From: Legionella steelei
GTDB lineage: Bacteria > Pseudomonadota > Gammaproteobacteria > Legionellales > Legionellaceae
Assembly (NCBI RefSeq): GCF_001468005.1
Contig: NZ_LNYY01000021.1
Location: 558,637-622,636 of the forward strand
DNA: 64,000 bases
Reading direction: 5' to 3'
Below, in pieces: positions 13,068-27,390 of this stretch (its first letter is position 1; each line of letters opens with the position of its first letter). The notes below the pieces were generated by a model. It saw nothing but the letters and a program-made list of their open reading frames with translations, did no database searches and was not told the DNA's origin. Position numbers and translations under genes: made by a program.

Positions 13068-14561
13068 TTAACTAGCAATATCTGATAGCTTTAATGTTCT
13101 TAATATTCTGTTAAATAATGGGATTCCTTCATCAGCGGTTGAGTTAGCATGGTCTGATTCGATCTTATTTCGTGCCTCTCCATAATCCTTCCAGTTAATT
13201 GATGCAGTATAAGCTTGCGCTTGATCCATGACCTTTACATAAGTTTTGAAATTTTTATCCCGAGAAGCAAGCCTTAACCCATTAAGATAATTATCTCGAT
13301 GAACAGTAGGAATCATTATTTTATAATCTTCATGACTGACCAGTTCCGCATTCATCATAATTCTTGATAAACGGCCATTGCCATCATCAAATGGATGTAC
13401 TTCGCTAATCAAAAAATGCATAAATAGAGCTCTCTCAAAACCAGGATTAAGAATATTATAACGTTCAAATCCTTGATATAAAGTGCCCAGTGATTCTTTG
13501 GGGGAAACAAAATACGTATTACCAGCTTTGTTTTGTTCAATCTTAAATTCACCCGGTCTTTTTTCTGGTCTTTCTTTCATTAAGATTGAATGTCTTCGTT
13601 GGAGAATTTCAATCAATTCTTTTGGAGTTCTGGGAGTTATACTCATCTCGTATAAATCATTAGTTATCGTGAAATTAGATAACACATCATGACTATCAGC
13701 ATGACGATTGTTAATTTCTTCACCTTTAAAAACGATGTCTTCCGCCTCATCAATTAAAAACTCAGTTCCCTCTATGAAATTAGAAAAATAAGATTCGTAG
13801 AAACTTAAGTTTTTGAAGGAATTTTTTTCGTATTGATATTGGCGAAAAATGAATTCACATTTTTTTAAATAAATAATTAACTCGTCAAATAGTTGGACTC
13901 GATAGTCATCATATGGTTTATTTTGAGCAATTGCTTTAGCGTAGGGTGAGACTAATGTATTTTTATCATGATGGGTTGAAAGTAGCGCGCTAATAATTTT
14001 CGTTAATTTTTCATATTCATTATTAAAATTGAGTTCTTTCGCTATTATTCTAGCCTCATCCCGTATAGCGTTTAATTTTTCTTCGCCTCTCAAATGTAAT
14101 TCTTTACTAAGAATTTTTTCAATACCTTCTATTCCTACAGTTTTGGTGCCTATATAAGATGCGCCCCTGACTGTTGTCAGATTTTCTAATAGTGACCTAG
14201 GCAAATTACTCCGTGCTAAATCAGGCGTAATTTGTTCAAAGAATTTATCGGGTTCCCCCTGATAAACTTTTATAACAAGACCAGGAAGATTGATTGTTTT
14301 TTCATATGTACTGACGACAAAAACAATTGATGATTTTGAGTCAAATCGGACAGGTTTTAACACCAGGGCGGAACTGTATCCAAGAATGCCTTGGGAAACT
14401 ATGTAAGGAATAATTTTCATCCATTCTTGTAATACAATATGTTCAATGCTGGTAGTTAAATCATCAGTATAAATACCCTGATAGATTCTTCTAAGTTTTT
14501 TATCCCTATATCGTCTGGATAAATTTTTTGCTGTCTTATTATCAGTTGCGAATTCTAGCAT
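13068..14561 (-). CDS. Fusion of AbiEi-like winged-helix domain and Fic domain
   Basis: 497 residues. The C-terminal half is a Fic AMP-transferase fold with a complete active-site motif, HPFDDGNGRLSR from H389. Fic proteins usually transfer AMP from ATP to a target hydroxyl. The N-terminal 200 residues (DKKLRRIYQGIYTDDL near the start, then a beta-rich body) resemble the winged-helix AbiEi antitoxin group, which binds its own promoter. The upstream DNA carries five copies of a GCGAA-type motif, the first overlapping codons 1-5, which fits autoregulation. It is the first gene of a minus-strand cluster with Phd-like and HTH antitoxins. The AbiEi assignment is by general resemblance and is less certain than Fic. 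Confidence 0.85.
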   Translation of the reverse strand: MLEFATDNKTAKNLSRRYRDKKLRRIYQGIYTDDLTTSIEHIVLQEWMKIIPYIVSQGILGYSSALVLKPVRFDSKSSIVFVVSTYEKTINLPGLVIKVYQGEPDKFFEQITPDLARSNLPRSLLENLTTVRGASYIGTKTVGIEGIEKILSKELHLRGEEKLNAIRDEARIIAKELNFNNEYEKLTKIISALLSTHHDKNTLVSPYAKAIAQNKPYDDYRVQLFDELIIYLKKCEFIFRQYQYEKNSFKNLSFYESYFSNFIEGTEFLIDEAEDIVFKGEEINNRHADSHDVLSNFTITNDLYEMSITPRTPKELIEILQRRHSILMKERPEKRPGEFKIEQNKAGNTYFVSPKESLGTLYQGFERYNILNPGFERALFMHFLISEVHPFDDGNGRLSRIMMNAELVSHEDYKIMIPTVHRDNYLNGLRLASRDKNFKTYVKVMDQAQAYTASINWKDYGEARNKIESDHANSTADEGIPLFNRILRTLKLSDIAS

Positions 14562-15640: not shown

Positions 15641-17415
15641 ATGAACTCTGCTGGAGAAAGAGTGATGCTGCAAAATCAACTTATTACATTAAAAAACAAA
15701 AACGACCATAAGCCTATAATCTGTGAATATGCTGGCGGTTGTTTTAAATTAAATGAGCAAGGCGTGTCTTTCCTTGGAAAAGACAAAGACGGTAATCCAA
15801 TGGCGCCACGCTGGATTTGTTCTCCTTTGTATGTGGTAGCTAAAACGCGTGATGCCAAAAGTGGGGAGTGGGGTCGATTACTTGAATGGCAGGATGATGA
15901 TGGGGTACTCCATCAATGGGCAATGCCCTGGCTTTGTTACAGGGTGATGCTTCTGAGGTCAGAAGGGAATTGGCGCGTCTGGGTTTGAGCATCTCGCCTC
16001 ATAAAATTTCCCGAGATTTACTGACTACCTATTTACAGGTCTTTCCTGTAGAGGACCGAGTGCGTTGTGTCGATAAACTGGGTTGGCATGAACACCTCTT
16101 TGTTACTGCCTCACAAACTCTTGGTCATTCGTCCGAAAAAATTGTTTTTCAAAATAGTCATGCGGTCGAATCAGCCATGTCTGTATCGGGTACTGTAGAA
16201 GATTGGCGAGAATCAATTGGACGTCTTGCCTCGGGTAATTCTCGATTGATTTTTGCCATTTCTGCTGCTTTTGCTCCTGCTTTGGCAAAAATTGCTGGTG
16301 AAGACTCCGGTGGGTTTCATTTCCGAGGTGCGTCTTCAAGCGGTAAAAGTACTGCGTTAAAAGTAGCGGCTTCGGTTTGGGGGAATCCGCAAGTTTATTG
16401 CCGATTATGGCGCAGTACGACTAATGGTCTTGAGGGACTGGCTGCTTTGTATAACGATGGCTTACTGATTCTGGATGAGCTAAGTCAAATAGATCCTAAG
16501 GAAGCAGGGGAGGCGGCTTACTTGTTGGCCAATGGTCAAGGCAAAACGCGCGCCTCACGCCATGGAACAGTCAAGCTATCTTCTCGATGGTCCTTATTCT
16601 TTCTCTCTGCTGGGGAAGAATCCTTAATGTCTTTGATGTCGAGAGCTGGGCAGAAACCCAATGCAGGACAAGAAATACGGTTAGCCGATATTGAAGCCGA
16701 TGCTGGGTTTCACATGGGGATTTTTGAAAAAATTCATAATCAGCTCAGCCCGGCTACCATGGCTTTATCCTTAAAGGAATATTCCAGCAAGTATTATGGT
16801 GCTGTGGGTATGGCATGGCTGCAAAAAGTGGTGGCAAACCAACAAAGCATTGCAACACACATTACTGATGGAATACAAGAATTTGTAAGTAGTGTTATTT
16901 TACCGGATTCAACGGGACAAATTATCCGCGTGGCGAGACGTTTTGCATTGGTCGCTGTTGCTGGTGAAGTAGCTAGCCAATATGGATTAACTGGGTGGAA
17001 AGAGGGCGAGTCTACTTATGCAGCTTATAAATGTTATCGAGCATGGTTGGAACATTTTGGCATGGAGGGTAATCGGGAAGATAGGGCAATTTTAGCCCAA
17101 GTTAGGGCCTTTTTTGAGTCCCATGGCGCCAGTCGGTTTGATAATGTAAGAACGCCAAACAACGAACGGATTCAAAATCGTGCAGGGTTTTATTCTACCG
17201 ATGATGCGGGATTTCGCATCTATATGGTATTAACGGAAGTGTTTAAAAAAGAATTATGTCAGGGATTTGAACCACGAACAGTTGCTCGTGTGTTAATGAA
17301 TGAAGGGTGGTTAAAGCCGGCAACAGATGGAATGCCTACTCATAAGCCAAGAGTCAAAGGAGTAGGAACACCCAGAGTTTATGTATTTACGGATAAAATT
17401 TGGGGCGGGGAATAA
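15641..17415 (+). pseudogene. DUF927 ATPase/helicase-like protein, frameshifted
   Basis: Two overlapping frames (15641-15988 and 15916-17415) together make one DUF927 protein. Frame 1 ends in QDDDGVLHQWAMPW and then loses homology, while frame 2 carries on with ALLQGDASEVRRELARLGL, so the reading frame shifts near 15925-15935. A missing pair of bases or one extra base in ATGCCCTGGCT explains it. Frame 2 holds Walker A GASSSGKST and Walker B LLILDELSQ, as in P-loop ATPases of mobile elements. The start is probably the ATG at 15641 or 15665. Function is likely element maintenance or mobilisation. A sequencing error cannot be excluded. Confidence 0.85.
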
Positions 17416-18534: not shown

Positions 18535-18675
18535 GATAAAGCAGGGCTTTATCCCTAATCCATGGTCAAATTAACGATGACTTAGAGTTCCAAAGAACTC
18601 CCTTTACTGAACAGTAAAGGTTCCTGAAGGTTTCCCGACTATACGTCCAGCCACAAGGTTAGGAATGAGAGTGGC
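18535..18675 (-). ncRNA. Chain of hairpins in the integrase leader
   Basis: Four perfect stems follow one another: GATAAAG/CTTTATC (18535-18553), GAGTTC/GAACTC with a CAAA loop (18585-18600), CCTTTACT/AGTAAAGG with a GAAC loop (18601-18620) and GCCAC/GTGGC (18650-18675). They lie just 3' of the hammerhead on the minus strand, between its cleavage site and the integrase start. They may be one folded RNA or a recombination site that works as folded DNA. Confidence 0.5.
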
Positions 18676-18677
18676 TT

Positions 18678-18731
18678 AGCATAAGACGCCTAAGCGTTTC
18701 ATCGGATTTTCACCGATTCATCAGTCATGCT
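18678..18731 (-). ncRNA. Type I hammerhead ribozyme
   Basis: Read on the minus strand, all core elements are present. Stem I is AGCATGA paired with TTATGCT (7 pairs, one G-U). Then come CTGATGA, stem II ATCGG/CCGAT with a 7-base loop, GAAA, stem III CGC/GCG with a TTAG loop closed by the A-U pair, and the GTC cleavage triplet. Cleavage would fall between 18685 and 18684. Stem I is the open stem, so this is type I. The first pair of stem II is A-U instead of the usual G-C. It sits in the leader of the integrase gene. Confidence 0.88.
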
Positions 18732-19303
18732 TCATTTAGAAAATATCAAAGTGCAGATCTGGGAGCAAGAGCATTAAAAGGAATATTTTGTCCTATCTTA
18801 TCTGGTGCGTCAGGACAAATGGGGATTCGATGCTTGATGTGGGAGGGTTAAATAAGGTGAATGTTGCTGCGTCACTGCTGGGATTTTGCAGTGAAGCAGA
18901 ACAAAAAATCATTTTAGCTTATAATTTAAACCGTAGACTACACTATGGATAAAACGCTATGAGTTCTACAACTTAAGCCAAAATTTATATCAAAGAGAAA
19001 GAATGAAAAAATAATAATTATGGAGTGTTTTTCTTAGTGATGGTTTGGTACTAGTATGTTAATTATTGATGAGGTTAGAGAGTATTGTAAATAAAGTAAT
19101 CTGTAGTGCTGTCCGATTGTTCTGTTCAAAAAAATTACCAAAGCTTTATTTTTCTATTAAACAGCGCCTCTTTCTGCAAGCGTTAACATAATCCATTCTA
19201 TATGTTTAATTGATTAAAAAAAGACCTTCTGATAATATTTTGACTGGTTGTTTAATTAATCTATATTTTGGATAGGAAGAAATTAAAAAATGGGTAAAAG
19301 TTA

Positions 19304-22300
19304 ATGAGCGAGATGAATCAGACTGGTACCCTTGAGGCAAATGAAGACCGCGCGAAATTGATCGCTGATCGTATTAATACATTACGGCCAAAATTACTTG
19401 ATTTAACAAGAAGAAACCCTCTAATTTCTACGAAATTTTCTGAACGTTCAAACTCATTGATAAGAATAGTAGATGAAGTTCCCGAGTTATTACTTAAATC
19501 TATTATATCTTGTGAAATGCGAATTGTGCCATTACCTGATTTAGGCACTGATCCTAGTGATGAACAGACTTCAATATTTCAGAGTTCTCTAGCAGATGCT
19601 AGGCTCAATGATGAAATTTACTTAAGTAAATTAGATGAAATAGATTCTGAAAGTGATGAGGCGCCAAATCTTTTAGCTCAAGCAGAACGTCAATTAAAAG
19701 ATAGAATTAGAGAGCAATTAAACTTACCAACGAGACAAACAAAAAATAATCTATCTTTACAACAGCATGCAAAAAATCATGGAATTTCTCCTAATTACGA
19801 ATTGTTTTTAGAGGGGCACCAAGCTGAGGATGGACGGCACGGTGATCAAGATATTCAGACTCTTCTGTTACCTGAGATATTAGAAAGACGGTTAAATGCA
19901 CTGTGTTCAAAAGAAAAAACTTGGAAAGAAGAGACAGGAATTAGTGTATTACATGTTGCATTTGGGTTTCTTGAATGGGAGGACGGAAATAATAGCTCTA
20001 CGCAGTTTTCTCCATTAGTGTTAATTCCTGTTTATATCGATAAAAAACGAACTAGGAATGGCCAAGAGTTTTGGGTTATCGGTGATGAGACAGAGGTGCA
20101 TGAGAATAAAATTCTTGCAGAGAAATTGCGCCTAGAGTTCAATATTATACTACCAGAATATACAAATCAGGGTTTAGAAAAATACTTTCAAGAGGTTGCC
20201 GAGCAACGTCCAAAAAATATGACATGGCGAATTAGGCGATGGGCTACGATAGGTGTTTTCCCTTCAGCTAGATTAGCGATGTATCACGATCTTGATCCTG
20301 AGGGGTGGGATTTCGCGTCTAATGAAGTTGTTTCTCTTTTATTTGGCGGTACAGACACGGGACATGATGCGTTGCCTTTTGGAGAGGAGTATCATGTAGA
20401 TGAGCCTGAAATTGAAAGCAAAGTGCCTTTCATTATTGCTGATGTAGATTCTTCGCAATTTAGTACTATAGTTGATATAGCTAGTGGAAAAAATTTAGCA
20501 GTTGAGGGACCACCAGGAACAGGAAAATCGCAAACAATTGTAAATACTATTGCAGCTTCGCTTTCCTTGGGATTGAAAGTTCTTTTTGTAGCTGAAAAGT
20601 CAGCGGCACTCGAAGTTGTTGGATCAAGATTAGAAGCATATGGAATTGGTAAATTTTTATTACCATTACAAGCAAACCGTTCCGGAAAAGAACAAGTAAT
20701 ATCCTCAATTAGGAATAGGCTTGAAATGAAGACATGTGCCAATCCTTCAGAGTTAGAACATGCAGTTAGACAATTTAAAGATACAAGACAAAAATTAAAA
20801 TTATATGTAGATATTTTATCCTCCACCTATGGAAAAACAGATCTTACTATTTATGAAGTTCTAGGGAGAAGTATTAAATTTTCAGATTTAATTAACAATC
20901 TACCCGAAAAAATAAAAAAACTAACCATTCCTGAAACAAAAATTATCACATCAGATAAATTAAATGATATTTTATCTCGTTGTAAGCAGGTTGAAGAAGC
21001 ATGGGAAGCTACATTACTGTATCCAGATTCTTGGAATATTATTCAAATAGCTAACATTGATCCTTTTCTTGCTGATGAGTTAGTTGATTTGGCTTTTGAT
21101 ATCTCTGCTTTTTTTGTTGAGGCAGATAAACAACGACAATCATTAATAGAATTTCGACTTTCACCTCTAATTGAGAGTGAAAGGCTCAGCAAAATTAGTA
21201 CCACTATTAAAAATACTCCAGAGATCTCAAATCAAGATCTTGATATAGTCACTAAGCTAACTTCTAACGAAATTATAGGGATTATAAAAAATTATCTAAA
21301 TGAAGCGCGTTTGTGGAGAGATAAAAGAGACAGCATTATTGATCTATTCAAGACTGATCTAGATTCGGTTGTCATAGAAGAATTATATCTTCTCAAAGAA
21401 CTATGTTTAAAATACCGAATAGAGTCATTCAAAGAACTGGTCTTAGATTCGATTATCCCAAAATATAAAAAATCTCTTGAATACAACATACAATCAGTGG
21501 AAATTTGTAATAAGGTAATTAATATCTCAGAAAGTCTTGGCAAGATAACAGTTCATGATTTTATTAAAATGCTTGAGATTATCTCTGGCATATCAAAGCA
21601 GGTATTATCAGTTAGAAAGAGCGACTTTGATGATCCGATAACTCATGTATTGATAGAGAAACAGGCATCACATGCTCAGGCTTTAAAGAAAACTCGATCT
21701 TTACTTGATGAAGAGTTTATTTTATCGATGCTTCAGGAAGGTGATATTACAAATCATCATGCTGAAACATTACGTCACTCAGGCTTTTTTTCTTTTCTCT
21801 CAAAGAAATATAGGCAAGCAAAGAAATATTATAAGTTAGTGTCTAAAAATAAAAAATTTAATAAATTATATGCTACTCAAAAACTTAGCCAATTAGGGCA
21901 ATGGCAAATAGACGTAAAAGTTTTTTGTGAAAATGTAGTCATGAAAAGTATTCTTGGCTCGCATTTTTTTGGTATAGAGACAGATTTTTCTCCTTTTGAG
22001 GAAGTAATATCATTATTTAATAATATTGATCATGAATTTTCAGGATCTGATTATGTTGACTTGAGGACTTTTCTAAAATTTGCGGATAGTGAAAAAATTC
22101 AATCAATTCCCATAATCGAAAAAAATCATCCTCTCTATGAAATAGAAGATACTACTTTGGCGAATGTAGCCGAACGAATTACCGTTTTGCAAGATCAAGT
22201 TAAGGATTGTGAGAGTGATCTCATACAGCTTAAAAAAATTATCAAGGTATTTAAAGAACCTGAAAAAATATCAAAAGAGCAAATTATTGAGCTTCCATTA

Positions 22301-24415
22301 ATATTTGAGCAATTATTAAAAACAAGGGAACACTTAAGACATAATGATGATATCAAAGGTATTCTTGGAGTAGCTTATAAAGCTGAACTCACTGATGAAC
22401 ATGAGTTAGAGAGATGCTTTATATTGGCTATGAATCTCATAGAGTTAAATGAGAATGAGCGACAGGCACTTTTGTATAGTGCAAAGCAAGGTTTTATAAA
22501 AAAATTGGAAACACAAGTATCGTGTGTTATGGATTGTGATGCTCAGGCCTTAACTAGTTTAGAAAAAATTGCTGCCATGACAAATACATTGCCAGAAAGA
22601 TGGTTAGATAATATGACCTATTTGGCTTTTTCAAAATGGATGGAACAGGCATCTAAAAATAAAGATGGTTTGGTTGCATATTCGCGATTTATTTCAGCTA
22701 AAAATAATGTAAAGCAAGATGGATACATGGAGCATATTGAAATTATCTTGTCTGAAAAATATGGTAATTTATGCGAAATAATTGAGGCATTAATAATACG
22801 TGAAATGGCTCGTGAGATCTATAAATCTCATGGTGAAATATTAGCATCATATAATGGTAGTAATTTGAATACATTAAGAAAGCGTTTGCAGGAAGCTGAT
22901 AGAGCAGTAATAAAGCTTTCTCGCAAACATTTGCAAGCTGAACTTTTTAATAAGGCTTGTCCACCACTTGGAATAGGTTTTGGGCGAAAAAGTGAATTTA
23001 CAGAACTTGCATTACTTAAAAATGAAATATCTAAAAAACAACGCCATATCCCAATTCGCAATCTTACAAAAAGAGCAGCGAGAGCACTGTTAGAGATTAA
23101 ACCTTGCTGGATGATGTCTCCTTTAGCTGTAGCTCAATATTTACCTCGAGGAGGAGTTGAATTTGATCTTGTAATTATTGATGAAGCATCCCAAATGACT
23201 CCAGAGGATTCAGTTGGTGCATTGATACGAGCCAAACAGGCGATGATCGTTGGTGATACTAATCAATTACCTCCTACGGGATTTTTCCGCAAGATGCTAG
23301 AAGATGAAAGTGCAGATGAAGATGAAAAAGTAACTGAGGAATCTATTTTAGAAATGGCCAATGCTTCTTTTACACCTGCAAGACGGCTTCGTTGGCATTA
23401 TAGGTCTAGACATTCGGGATTAATATCATTTTCTAATAAACATGTTTATAACAATGATCTAGTGGTGTTCCCTTCTGCGCAGGAAGATCATCCACATATG
23501 GGAATATCTTATATCAAAGTTAATGGAACATATTCCTCGGGTACTAATCCTAAAGAAGCTATGATCATGATAGACGCGATTATCGATTTTATGAGAGTAC
23601 ATACCGATAAATCTTTAGGTGTAGTTCTTATGAATCAGAAGCAGCGAGATCTATTACTCGATGAAATGAACTATGCTTTGGAGCAACATCCGCAAGCAAG
23701 AGAGTATATAGAGAGGTGGGATGTAGCTAATGATGGATTGGAATCATTTTTCATAAAAAACCTAGAGAATGTCCAGGGCGATGAGCGGGATGTTATTTTC
23801 ATTGGTACTGTTTATGGAGCAGAAAAAGAAGGAGCTCCCGTAATGCAACGTTTTGGACCGATAAATGGAATAGCTGGAAAACGAAGGTTAAATGTTCTTT
23901 TTTCTAGAGCTAAAGAGCGAATCGTTACGTTTTCCTCTATGACTTCGGCAGATATTCGTGCGGAAGAGGAGTCCAACCCTGGTGTGTATATGCTTAAATG
24001 TTGGTTGGAATACTCTAGCTCTGGGATTCTGGAGACTGGACAATACACTGAAAAAGAACCTGATTCTGATTTTGAAGAGCATGTTATTAAGCAAATAATA
24101 TCAATTGGTTGTGTAGCAATCCCGCAAGTTGGCGTTAAAGGATACTCTATTGATATAGGTATTAAGCATCCAGATTGGCCTCATGGCTTTATTATGGGAG
24201 TAGAGTGCGATGGCGCATCTTATCACTCTTCTCGCTCCGCCCGAGATCGTGATCGTTTAAGACAAGAGGTTTTGGAGGGGCTCGGGTGGAATCTTTATCG
24301 TATCTGGTCAACAGATTGGTTTGAGGATCCGCGACGTGAAACAGAAAAACTAAGAAGAGCAATTCATGCGAGATTGTCACAGTTGTTGAACTATCCGGAA
24401 TTTCCAGATGATTGA
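19304..24415 (+). CDS. DUF4011-SF1 helicase-Vsr-like nuclease (Hhe-type defence protein)
   Basis: 1703 residues. The N-terminal 380 residues match the DUF4011 layout (RINTLRPKLLDLTRRNPLI near residue 27). A superfamily 1 helicase follows, split by a long helical insert: Walker A GPPGTGKS at 402-409, DEAS at 1293-1296, GDTNQLPP near 1317, then QGDERDVIF and RRLNVLFSRAKE near 1490-1540. The C-terminal 100 residues resemble a Vsr/PD-(D/E)xK nuclease (DUF3320-like): D1617, the ECDG group at 1634-1637, then GLGWNLYRIWSTDWF. This domain order is that of single-gene Hhe anti-phage systems. It stands alone between an integrative module and a second Fic gene, typical defence-island context. Confidence 0.88.
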   Translation: MSEMNQTGTLEANEDRAKLIADRINTLRPKLLDLTRRNPLISTKFSERSNSLIRIVDEVPELLLKSIISCEMRIVPLPDLGTDPSDEQTSIFQSSLADARLNDEIYLSKLDEIDSESDEAPNLLAQAERQLKDRIREQLNLPTRQTKNNLSLQQHAKNHGISPNYELFLEGHQAEDGRHGDQDIQTLLLPEILERRLNALCSKEKTWKEETGISVLHVAFGFLEWEDGNNSSTQFSPLVLIPVYIDKKRTRNGQEFWVIGDETEVHENKILAEKLRLEFNIILPEYTNQGLEKYFQEVAEQRPKNMTWRIRRWATIGVFPSARLAMYHDLDPEGWDFASNEVVSLLFGGTDTGHDALPFGEEYHVDEPEIESKVPFIIADVDSSQFSTIVDIASGKNLAVEGPPGTGKSQTIVNTIAASLSLGLKVLFVAEKSAALEVVGSRLEAYGIGKFLLPLQANRSGKEQVISSIRNRLEMKTCANPSELEHAVRQFKDTRQKLKLYVDILSSTYGKTDLTIYEVLGRSIKFSDLINNLPEKIKKLTIPETKIITSDKLNDILSRCKQVEEAWEATLLYPDSWNIIQIANIDPFLADELVDLAFDISAFFVEADKQRQSLIEFRLSPLIESERLSKISTTIKNTPEISNQDLDIVTKLTSNEIIGIIKNYLNEARLWRDKRDSIIDLFKTDLDSVVIEELYLLKELCLKYRIESFKELVLDSIIPKYKKSLEYNIQSVEICNKVINISESLGKITVHDFIKMLEIISGISKQVLSVRKSDFDDPITHVLIEKQASHAQALKKTRSLLDEEFILSMLQEGDITNHHAETLRHSGFFSFLSKKYRQAKKYYKLVSKNKKFNKLYATQKLSQLGQWQIDVKVFCENVVMKSILGSHFFGIETDFSPFEEVISLFNNIDHEFSGSDYVDLRTFLKFADSEKIQSIPIIEKNHPLYEIEDTTLANVAERITVLQDQVKDCESDLIQLKKIIKVFKEPEKISKEQIIELPLIFEQLLKTREHLRHNDDIKGILGVAYKAELTDEHELERCFILAMNLIELNENERQALLYSAKQGFIKKLETQVSCVMDCDAQALTSLEKIAAMTNTLPERWLDNMTYLAFSKWMEQASKNKDGLVAYSRFISAKNNVKQDGYMEHIEIILSEKYGNLCEIIEALIIREMAREIYKSHGEILASYNGSNLNTLRKRLQEADRAVIKLSRKHLQAELFNKACPPLGIGFGRKSEFTELALLKNEISKKQRHIPIRNLTKRAARALLEIKPCWMMSPLAVAQYLPRGGVEFDLVIIDEASQMTPEDSVGALIRAKQAMIVGDTNQLPPTGFFRKMLEDESADEDEKVTEESILEMANASFTPARRLRWHYRSRHSGLISFSNKHVYNNDLVVFPSAQEDHPHMGISYIKVNGTYSSGTNPKEAMIMIDAIIDFMRVHTDKSLGVVLMNQKQRDLLLDEMNYALEQHPQAREYIERWDVANDGLESFFIKNLENVQGDERDVIFIGTVYGAEKEGAPVMQRFGPINGIAGKRRLNVLFSRAKERIVTFSSMTSADIRAEEESNPGVYMLKCWLEYSSSGILETGQYTEKEPDSDFEEHVIKQIISIGCVAIPQVGVKGYSIDIGIKHPDWPHGFIMGVECDGASYHSSRSARDRDRLRQEVLEGLGWNLYRIWSTDWFEDPRRETEKLRRAIHARLSQLLNYPEFPDD

Positions 24416-25467: not shown

Positions 25468-25541
25468 TGATTAACATAATCATATTTTATTAATCATTAA
25501 TATGCTATATTTTGATTAATAAAATGCGAGGTTATTAATCA
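25468..25541. promoter_or_regulatory. Palindromic operator of the Fic gene
   Basis: Half-sites of TGATTAAT occur four times. A perfect 12-base inverted repeat, TTTTATTAATCA (25485-25496) and TGATTAATAAAA (25513-25524), brackets a TATGCTATAT core that could be the -10 region. Further half-sites lie at 25468-25475 and 25532-25541, the latter touching the start codon. The pattern fits autoregulation by the Fic protein, whose family often has a C-terminal winged helix. Confidence 0.55.
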
Positions 25542-26650
25542 TGAAATGGAATTGGCAGCTTGAAAATTGGCCTAATTTTACTTGGGACTCCGATAAATTA
25601 GTTGTGTTTGAACAGTCTTTTACTGAGGGTGCGGGTATTATTATTGGTTCTTCGCAACACATTTCTCAAGAAGGTAAGCAAAATTTATTTATTGATTTAA
25701 TGTGTACGGATGCTTTGGATAGCTCTGAAATTGAAGGGGAGCATTTAAACAGGGATAGTGTTCAATCATCTATTCAAAAAGAGTTAGGTTTGTCTACTGT
25801 AGCTCCAAGAGCTAGTATGGCAGAGCGTGGGATCGCTAAAATGATGGTTAATTTATATCAAACGATTTCTAGTCCGCTAACACATCAGGTTTTATTTGAA
25901 TGGCATCAATTTTTAATGGGTAATAGCCATCATTTAGAACATATTGGTCAATATCGTAAGCATGAAGAAGCAATGCAGATTGTTTCTGGGCCTGATTATG
26001 ATCGAAAAATCCATTTTGAAGCGCCTCCTTCAAAATGTGTTCGGGCTGAAATGGATCAATTTATTAATTGGTTTGAACGGAGTTCTCTCACCGGTTCAGC
26101 TCCTTTACCCACATTAACCCGAGCGGGAATAGCCCATTTATGGTTTGAGAGTATCCATCCTTTTGAAGATGGGAATGGAAGAATAGGGCGGGCTATCGCA
26201 GAAAAAGCTTTATCGCAAGGATTTTCAAAACCAGTAATGACAGTATTGGCAAAAATATTATTAAAAAAGAGAAAGGAATATTATCAACAGTTAGGTTTAG
26301 CAAGCAAAACCTTGGATCTCACCTCTTGGTTGATATGGTTCGCTAACATCGCTCTAGAAGCGCAACAAAGCACTTATTTGTATATAGATTTTATTATTAA
26401 GAAATCTGTTATTTTAAGGGAAGCGGAAGGGAAAATTAATCCAAGGCAAGAAAAGGTTTTATTAAAATTATTTCATGCTGGACCAGATGGATTTGTAGGT
26501 GGTTTGAGCGCTAAAAATTATATGAGCATAACAGGCGCACCGATCGCTACAACAACTAGAGATTTGAATGACTTGGTGAAAAAAAATATTCTCAAACGAA
26601 CTGGCGAACTTAAAGCGACTCGTTATTTTTTAAATCTTGATAAGGCTTAA
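25541..26650 (+). CDS. Fic family protein with DUF4172 N-terminal domain
   Basis: 369 residues. The N-terminal DUF4172 region begins MKWNWQLENWPNFTWDSDKL. It contains SSEIEG near residue 70, which fits the S/TxxxE(G/N) inhibitory helix that keeps Fic enzymes off until it moves. The Fic core has HPFEDGNGRIGR from H206, a complete AMP-transfer motif. The last 90 residues form a winged-helix-like domain (KVLLKLFHAG..., ITGAPIATTTRDLNDLVKK). GCGAGG serves as ribosome site. It stands alone behind a palindromic operator. A damaged second copy of its middle part exists at 37815-38045. Confidence 0.93.
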   Translation: MKWNWQLENWPNFTWDSDKLVVFEQSFTEGAGIIIGSSQHISQEGKQNLFIDLMCTDALDSSEIEGEHLNRDSVQSSIQKELGLSTVAPRASMAERGIAKMMVNLYQTISSPLTHQVLFEWHQFLMGNSHHLEHIGQYRKHEEAMQIVSGPDYDRKIHFEAPPSKCVRAEMDQFINWFERSSLTGSAPLPTLTRAGIAHLWFESIHPFEDGNGRIGRAIAEKALSQGFSKPVMTVLAKILLKKRKEYYQQLGLASKTLDLTSWLIWFANIALEAQQSTYLYIDFIIKKSVILREAEGKINPRQEKVLLKLFHAGPDGFVGGLSAKNYMSITGAPIATTTRDLNDLVKKNILKRTGELKATRYFLNLDKA

Positions 26651-26807: not shown

Positions 26808-27390
26808 TCAATGCGATCCAAATTGAAGAGGTTGGATACCAATAATATCAGCAGATCTAATAACGCCCATACACTTTAAAAAATAATCGGTAATCAATTG
26901 CATTGGTTTTCTCAACCGCTCCACATCTGTAATAATATACCCAGCGGTCACATCATTACTCATTTTATGATTCATTAGCCGTTTAAGCGCATAAACAGAA
27001 ATATCCAAGCTTTCAGCAATAGTGATAAAGGTACGTCTTAAATCATGAACGGTAAAGTGGACACCAGATGCTTTGGTTACATTAGCCATTTGTTTACGTG
27101 GCTCAATAATATGACCAGCAGCACCAGTTCCTGGGAATACATAATCGTTTATCTTCTTCTCATGACGAGCTACCAATAAATCATAGAGAAAATCAGAAAG
27201 GGGTAGGGTGTGGGATTCATTGTTTTTCGTTTTAACCACTATAAAGGTTTTTGCTGCCAGATCGACATTTTCCCATTTTAAGGTTGCAGCTTCTTCTCTA
27301 CGTAAGCCTGTTAGTAAAACGAATAATAAGTAATCGCGTAGGGTTTCATTTTCAATATTTTTAAGAGCAGTATACCAAAATGTTTATCAT
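26808..27390 (-). pseudogene. Tyrosine recombinase (phage integrase), 5'-truncated
   Basis: The frame carries the catalytic half of a P4-type integrase: LLTGLRREEAATLKW with the first active-site Arg, HDLRRTFITIAE with the His/Arg pair, and a distal Tyr in AGYIITDVERLR. Reading upstream, it meets stop codons at about 27390 and the N-terminal half (about 200 residues) is gone. What follows is the terminator of the next gene, so a deletion or insertion fused unrelated DNA here. It marks the probable right end of the accessory region that starts at tRNA-Thr. Confidence 0.85.

What the first reader, a model, noticed from the sequence alone, without database searches (positions are those of the whole stretch)
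18678..18731. Complete type I hammerhead ribozyme in the leader of an integrase gene
The minus strand shows every element of the hammerhead core in order: stem I (7 pairs), CTGATGA, a 5-pair stem II, GAAA, a 3-pair stem III with a TTAG loop, and the GTC cleavage triplet. The chance of all parts matching with all three stems paired is very small. It lies about 350 bases upstream of the integrase start on the same strand, so the integrase transcript would cut itself and begin with a 5'-OH. Hammerheads are known from bacterial and phage DNA, but a self-cleaving leader on an Integrase_1/DUF927 element in Legionella looks little described.
Basis: partly seen in the sequence, partly recalled or inferred. 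Interest (0 to 1): 0.88.

Follow-up and report, generated by a model that had tools for sequence, protein, structure and literature searches.

The report
Self-cutting RNA leader of mobile elements
The RNA start of a mobile-element gene in a Legionella relative carries a convincing self-cutting hammerhead ribozyme fused to a folded RNA knot, and the same leader heads both recombinase-like and anti-restriction genes in many related bacteria, which makes the unexplained role of bacterial hammerheads testable.

Summary
The hammerhead is real by sequence: type I, complete core, minus strand 18731-18678. It is the only such hit in the window, against none in 60 shuffles, and the RNA folds as drawn. 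Rfam's hammerhead models miss it, but a model built from relatives finds the leader in 84 of 143 Legionellaceae genomes. In 101 aligned copies the core is intact in 99 and the stems covary. New here: the ribozyme is the 5' half of a composite leader. Its 3' flank pairs with Rfam's orphan motif RAGATH-32 to form a pseudoknot that Rfam does not model. Of 101 leaders, 63 head an integrase-like gene (int1) and 24 an ssb/ardA operon. A palindrome that behaves as a recombination site lies 126-130 nt upstream in 53 of 60 int leaders. Correction: int1 has no Integrase_1 match and lacks the first catalytic arginine in 35 of 35. Hammerheads near integrases and Legionella ardA were already in print (PMC3088659). 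Likely role: a self-trimming, pseudoknot-capped 5' leader for establishment genes. Cleavage was not shown.

The parts
18867..18899 (.). Palindrome CTGCGTCACTGC-N-GCAGTGAAGCAG, probable recombination (att) site
   Evidence: 126-130 nt upstream of 53 of 60 int leaders; insertion with 41-bp direct repeat in L130 and empty sites in L042 and L061
18785..18819 (.). Inverted repeat TTTGTCCT..AGGACAAAAT between palindrome and promoter-like pair; role unknown
   Evidence: read by eye
18740..18768 (-). Promoter-like pair TTGCTC-17-TATTTT directly before the ribozyme
   Evidence: position conserved in relatives (consensus), but hexamer scores are no better than shuffles
18678..18731 (-). Type I hammerhead ribozyme; cleavage step between 18685 and 18684
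18632..18675 (-). Pseudoknot: hairpin GCCAC (18675-18671)/GTGGC (18654-18650), its loop TTCC (18665-18662) pairing with GGAA (18635-18632); 4 pairs in the window copy, 5 in most relatives
18578..18654 (-). RAGATH-32 (RF02922), 96.3 bits
18360..18454 (-). RAGATH-13 (RF02688), 107.3 bits
17516..18325 (-). int1, tyrosine-recombinase-like protein of 269 aa without the first catalytic arginine

Best explanation
A composite self-processing 5' leader. Transcription most likely starts at the first base of the hammerhead. The ribozyme cuts off its own ~50-nt 5' part together with the 5'-triphosphate. The mRNA then begins with a 5'-OH nine bases before a compact pseudoknot that runs into RAGATH-32. Such an end is the same whatever lies upstream, including read-through from cargo inserted at the palindrome about 130 bp away, and should resist 5'-end-dependent decay. 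The same leader heads the two operons that an incoming element needs first, the recombinase-like one (int1, with or without int2) and ssb/ardA. I read it as a standard establishment leader that works like the engineered RiboJ insulator (hammerhead plus hairpin). Shown here: the ribozyme and pseudoknot structures by comparison, their conservation, their positions and their genes. Inferred: transcription start, cleavage in the cell, 5'-OH, stability and insulation.
For: Core intact in 99 of 101 copies, position 7 free; 94.7% of cells paired against 84.3% shuffled, 24 of 30 pairs with a change on both sides; pseudoknot pairs UUCUC/GAGAA and AUCCC/GGGAU besides UUCCC/GGGAA; 65 of 66 loci brought in by RAGATH-13 or RAGATH-32, not by the ribozyme, have the leader; 63 int1 and 24 ssb/ardA leaders of 101; palindrome 126-130 nt upstream of 53 of 60 int leaders and shown as an insertion site; two leaders outside the family head an int1 relative and an ArdA gene. 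RiboJ: ribozyme plus hairpin gives uniform 5' ends and about twofold more transcript (PMC6206723, passages). ArdA and SSB genes are typical of plasmid leading regions (PMC11541004, passages).
Against: No cleavage or transcript data. Promoter hexamers score no better than shuffles. The energy-only fold of L112 and of the ardA leader L001:5047-5154 is not a hammerhead (z +0.42 and +0.57). Upstream ORFs face the leader in only 14 of 27 loci, so insulation is not specially needed in half. 14 of 101 leaders head neither operon (some for want of sequence). The ssb/ardA leaders have no palindrome in 21 of 22 cases, so insulation from cargo cannot explain them. The window copy lacks one pseudoknot pair.
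Confidence: 0.5

Rival explanations
1. Regulated switch: the pseudoknot/RAGATH-32 domain binds a ligand, ion or element protein (perhaps int1 itself) and changes ribozyme speed or translation, so the leader is a sensor and not a constant processing device.
For: The pseudoknot is conserved beyond what a simple cap would need (CGU..AG bases nearly fixed); RAGATH-32 is typed Cis-reg in Rfam; int1 resembles DNA-binding repressors such as SroF and MrpR as well as recombinases.
Against: No ligand pocket or partner is known; the RAGATH-32 hairpins are not found by Rfam in the ssb/ardA leaders of the loci scanned, so a shared sensor would have to be the pseudoknot alone.
Confidence: 0.25
2. RNA release or circle: the hammerhead and RAGATH-13 (typed ribozyme in Rfam) both cut and free the RNA between them, which may be ligated.
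For: Rfam types RAGATH-13 as a ribozyme; the two motifs flank RAGATH-32.
Against: A recent paper counts only three RAGATH members as shown ribozymes, hammerhead, HDV-like and twister-sister (PMC11061315, passage). The ssb/ardA leaders in the loci scanned have no RAGATH-13 at the gathering score.
Confidence: 0.07
3. DNA-level role: the conserved stems are part of a folded recombination or single-strand DNA site near the palindrome, and RNA cleavage is incidental.
For: The palindrome lies at a nearly fixed distance.
Against: Conservation follows hammerhead catalysis: all fixed core positions hold and position 7 drifts; 21 of 22 ssb/ardA leaders have no palindrome.
Confidence: 0.06
4. Chance resemblance or an inactive relic.
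For: Rfam hammerhead models do not reach threshold.
Against: 0 hits in 60 shuffles; covariation in 101 copies; core intact in 99 of 101.
Confidence: 0.03

Closest known systems
Bacterial hammerhead ribozymes near integrases and ardA (Perreault et al. 2011, PMC3088659; passages seen)
   Same: Hammerhead core; many bacterial cases lie near integrases; ardA lies directly behind a hammerhead in three Legionella strains, probably the ssb/ardA leader found here.
   Different: The passages I saw do not mention the downstream pseudoknot with RAGATH-32, the shared leader of two operons, or the palindrome. The pseudoknot named in that paper joins stems I and II of the hammerhead itself.
RAGATH-32 (RF02922) and RAGATH-13 (RF02688)
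   Same: Both match the window above their gathering scores.
   Different: Rfam leaves the first 35 positions of RAGATH-32 unpaired (consensus line); here they pair with the 3' flank of the ribozyme. Rfam does not join either motif to a hammerhead in these hits.
RiboJ insulator (engineered; PMC6206723, passages)
   Same: Hammerhead between promoter and gene, followed at once by a hairpin structure that stays on the mRNA.
   Different: Natural, type I, with a pseudoknot and more structured RNA after it; effect on expression untested.
Phage repressors with a tyrosine-recombinase fold (SroF 9rd5, MrpR 8a0a)
   Same: Among the Foldseek matches of int1 (TM 0.48 for SroF, the best TM of the rows shown), beside Cre, XerA, lambda and Tn1549 integrases.
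   Different: Weak matches overall (one at E <= 0.001, rmsd about 10); whether int1 represses, assists or recombines is unknown.

Membership tests
Hammerhead ribozyme, type I | Core CUGANGA / GAAA / UH in order | tested here: met
   99 of 101 copies
Hammerhead ribozyme, type I | Three helices around the core, stem I open | tested here: met
Hammerhead ribozyme, type I | Match to a curated covariance model (Rfam) | tested here: not met
   best 19.4 bits, gathering 48.5; no RF00163 match in the own genome, though that search rang in no control either
Hammerhead ribozyme, type I | Stem I - stem II tertiary contact | not tested
   no 3D modelling of the RNA was done
Hammerhead ribozyme, type I | Mg-dependent self-cleavage | not testable with these tools
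   bench step, referred
RAGATH-32 | Match above the gathering score | tested here: met
   96.3 against 41.8 bits
RAGATH-13 | Match above the gathering score | tested here: met
   107.3 against 80 bits
RAGATH-13 | Self-cleaving activity, as its Rfam type suggests | not testable with these tools
   none
Integrase_1 (PF12835) | Pfam match of the gene behind the leader | tested here: not met
   int1: no match at E <= 0.001, nor any integrase family at E <= 10
Active tyrosine recombinase | Tyrosine-recombinase fold | tested here: inconclusive
   top PDB matches are recombinases, but TM 0.34-0.48; model pLDDT 79.5, pTM 0.53
Active tyrosine recombinase | First catalytic arginine (FGLR in int2) | tested here: not met
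   T in 34 and N in 1 of 35 int1 proteins; that this is the catalytic arginine is recalled
RiboJ-like insulator (works like) | Ribozyme followed at once by a 5' hairpin, giving one 5' end from any upstream context | tested here: inconclusive
   layout met; effect untested, promoter not established

The most novel reading that the evidence does not exclude
A natural RiboJ: a family of mobile elements uses one self-cleaving, pseudoknot-capped leader as a movable 5' part on each operon it must express on entering a new cell (recombinase-like and ssb/ardA). In front of int1 it sits about 130 bp from the site where cargo, often anti-phage defence genes, is inserted, so that expression does not depend on the DNA that has landed upstream. 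This would also give a function to the orphan motif RAGATH-32.
Probability: 0.3. Interest if true: 0.82.

Novelty: new variant of a known kind. Interest (0 to 1): 0.6.

Why it matters
A review says that the biological roles of prokaryotic hammerheads remain an open question (PMC6155905, passage). Here one hammerhead is tied to a partner fold, two gene classes and a recombination site, in 84 of 143 genomes of a family, so its role can be asked of transcript ends. The pseudoknot also redraws RAGATH-32, one of the RAGATH motifs whose function is said to be unknown (PMC11061315, passage); in that same paper RAGATH-18 proved to be the guide RNA of IS607 TnpB nucleases. Rfam's hammerhead models found none of the 17 leaders in the nine loci scanned, so annotations built on them are likely to miss the family.

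Tried and rejected
Chance: rejected by shuffles and covariation. Rfam hammerhead models: no hit in the own genome with RF00163 (it rang in no control genome either), in the window at gathering, or in nine fetched loci holding 17 leaders. Phage or virus origin: the RAGATH-32 pattern has no match in viral contigs, int1 found no relative there, and the leader region has no match in phages; plasmids gave 3 Legionella records. int1 against solved structures by sequence: nothing convincing. Promoter scoring did not separate from shuffles. Orientation of the upstream ORF, by a crude longest-ORF rule, was mixed: 14 toward and 13 away. The order search only repeated the family's 143 genomes; searches around the two outside lineages held 3 and 1 genomes.

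Bias and dropped rows: A1 (42 sequences) came from a descriptor that demands core and stems, so its hammerhead counts lean to the structure, and R1 inherits this; the five pseudoknot pairs were in neither the descriptor nor R1. A2 was made from 96 of the 193 loci then held, near-identical ones left out by hand; it has 101 rows, 97 distinct, and at least three places were fetched twice (L037, L184 and L187 repeat places in L128). L112 and L113 are misaligned in the pseudoknot columns of A2; by eye L112 pairs GCUGA/UCAGC and ACUCU/AGAGU. L114 (cut off) and L118 (second hairpin not clear by eye) were left out of A2, as were the decayed copies L126:3529 and, under its L126 name, L126:6691 (it is in A2 as L163). 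Match tables are cut by the tool. A3 holds 35 of the 55 int1 proteins. In one search int2 hits at int1 positions are cross-hits. One search used 95 of the 101 leaders (duplicates and short upstream stretches dropped by the script). L125-L133 were chosen partly because two hits lay near each other. int2 absence: tested with 1 kb or more after int1 in the window, L005, L007 and L011; L002, L003, L008 and L013 hold only 0.3-0.6 kb there. L021 is the one of 66 RAGATH loci without a leader.

Full report
1. The observation. Read on the minus strand, 18731-18678 gives stem I, CTGATGA, stem II with its loop, GAAA, stem III with a TTAG loop, TC and the other side of stem I. Stem I has 7 pairs (one G-U), stem II 5, stem III 3 plus the A15.1-U16.1 pair. 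The cleavage step falls between 18685 and 18684. Stem I is open, hence type I. The minimum-energy fold of the 61-nt RNA is exactly this (-15.2 kcal/mol, shuffles -9.06, z -2.58). A loose descriptor finds one place in the window and none in 60 dinucleotide shuffles. No Rfam hammerhead family reaches its gathering score here or in nine fetched loci that hold 17 leaders.

2. The neighbourhood. Rfam finds two other motifs between ribozyme and gene: RAGATH-32 (18654-18578, 96.3 bits) and RAGATH-13 (18454-18360, 107.3 bits). A RAGATH-32 pattern scan of GTDB species genomes returned 13 stretches, all Legionella or Legionellaceae by title, and all 13 carry a hammerhead upstream with changed but paired stems. 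Of 66 loci brought in by RAGATH-13 or RAGATH-32 matches, not by the ribozyme, 65 have the leader; many of the 66 overlap and they are the best-scoring ones. The exception, L021, has none. RAGATH-13 matches 76 of 143 Legionellaceae genomes and RAGATH-32 64 of 143; in a draw of 369 genomes of the class RAGATH-13 rings in 3, all of this family.

3. A composite RNA. Aligning 42 copies showed that the 3' flank of the ribozyme (GCCAC) pairs with the first bases of RAGATH-32 (GTGGC), and that the loop of this hairpin (UUCCC) pairs with GGGAA further into RAGATH-32: a pseudoknot. Rfam's model leaves these 35 positions unpaired; the 5' partner lies outside it. With a model R1 that knows the hammerhead, this hairpin and the small one after it, but not the pseudoknot pairs, 101 copies were aligned. 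Over all 30 pairs 94.7% of cells pair (84.3% shuffled), 24 pairs change on both sides (15.0 shuffled), and the covariation score is 0.331 (0.154); none of these was reached in 500 shuffles. Sliding the partners by 1-3 columns drops pairing to 30-46%. In the pseudoknot helix 94.8% of cells pair, with both-side changes in 3 of 5 pairs. UUCCC/GGGAA stands in 81 rows, UUCUC/GAGAA in 3, AUCCC/GGGAU in 2. The window copy has lost one C and keeps 4 pairs. Against this, energy-only folding does not give a hammerhead for L112 or for the ardA leader of L001 (z +0.42 and +0.57).

4. Core. CUGA-N-GA, GAAA and UC are intact in 99 of 101 copies; position 7 is U 70, A 15, C 14, G 2. Freedom at position 7 is what I recall for hammerheads. 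The exceptions are L163, which heads neither operon, and L188, which heads int1. The training set was picked by a core pattern, so conservation is somewhat inflated.

5. Spread. R1 finds the leader in 84 of 143 Legionellaceae genomes, up to 13 per genome, and in 6 of 369 genomes of the class, three of them outside the family. Of those, L112 heads an int1 relative and L113 an ArdA gene. The own genome has three copies, the window one.

6. Two kinds of operon. Of 101 leaders, 63 are followed by int1, 24 by a small protein, ssb and/or ardA, and 14 by neither, some for want of sequence. SSB, ArdA and int2 (Phage_int_SAM_2 plus Integrase_1) were confirmed by Pfam. In nine long stretches (L001, L125, L127-L133), chosen partly for having two hits, an int leader is followed on the same strand by an ssb/ardA leader 2.2-9.9 kb away (coordinates, classes).

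7. The gene. int1 has no Pfam family. Its predicted structure (mean pLDDT 79.5, pTM 0.53) matches Cre, XerA, lambda and Tn1549 integrases, and also the phage repressors SroF and MrpR, all weakly (TM 0.34-0.48, one match at E <= 0.001). The residue at the arginine of the FGLR motif is T in 34 and N in 1 of 35. So int1 may be a partner or regulator. In the window no int2 follows. A further integrase of P4 type (my label) lies in L003, L007 and L012 and matches the window in part at 27377-26823. Which protein recombines is open.

8. The site. A palindrome, CTGCGTCACTGC-N-GCAGTGACGCAG, lies 126-130 nt upstream of 53 of 60 int leaders, 123-130 nt upstream of 12 of 13 leaders with other genes, and upstream of 1 of 22 ssb/ardA leaders. 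An exact form occurs in 57 of 143 genomes, with no match of the reversed control in the rows shown. In L130 a 1378-bp segment with two ORFs (LuxR-like and secreted, by eye) lies between two copies with a 41-bp direct repeat; L042 and L061 show the site without it. So the palindrome is very likely a recombination site. In the window the neighbour across it is a Hhe/PDC-S37-type defence gene; L003 and L007 carry other defence genes nearby.

9. How it most likely works. A promoter-like pair lies at a conserved place, but its score is no better than shuffles. If it is the promoter, the ribozyme is the first thing transcribed; cleavage would remove the triphosphate end and leave a 5'-OH nine bases before the pseudoknot. 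RiboJ has the same layout; it makes 5' ends uniform and raised transcript level about twofold in E. coli (PMC6206723, passages). ArdA and SSB genes are typical of plasmid leading regions (PMC11541004, passages). I therefore propose a standard establishment leader. Insulation from cargo read-through is possible: the longest upstream ORF faces the leader in 14 of 27 loci. Cleavage, ends and stability are inferred.

10. What is known. Hammerheads near bacterial integrases, and ardA behind a hammerhead in three Legionella strains, are in PMC3088659 (passages). I found no description of the hammerhead-pseudoknot composite in searches of the open PMC library, of which I saw listings and the passages cited. 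The two papers I looked up as sources of the RAGATH motifs (recalled) are not held, so they may mention it. Verdict: real, partly known, with a new composite form and a testable role.

Noticed in passing
window 15641-15988 and 15916-17415 (+): DUF927 gene (SCC Cch-like by NCBIfam) split over two overlapping frames, while L007 has one 584-aa ORF. Described only.
   Followed up: no
window 19304-24415 (+); L003, L007: Large Hhe/PDC-S37-type helicase-nuclease next to the palindrome in the window; AbiL-type plus RT-Toprim genes in L003 and TIR-like plus caspase-like genes in L007 near the same place: a variable defence cargo slot.
   Followed up: partly
window 26823-27377 (-): Part of a further integrase, 78% identical to residues 225-409 of the 416-aa integrase of L003; only this part matched.
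   Followed up: no
L130:1702-3120; L224 (G476): Cargo between two palindromes: 1.38 kb in L130 and about 6.9 kb with several ORFs in L224, an integron-like look.
   Followed up: partly
L184 (same place as L128:18367-18477, -): A leader followed by an HTH gene and HipA-like ORFs (by eye), neither int1 nor ssb/ardA.
   Followed up: no
window 18785-18819: Inverted repeat TTTGTCC..GGACAAAAT kept between palindrome and promoter-like pair, with changed loop and longer arms in L001 and L004; possible operator or recombinase arm site.
   Followed up: no
window 13068-14561 (-), 25541-26650 (+): Two Fic-domain proteins on either side of the island.
   Followed up: no
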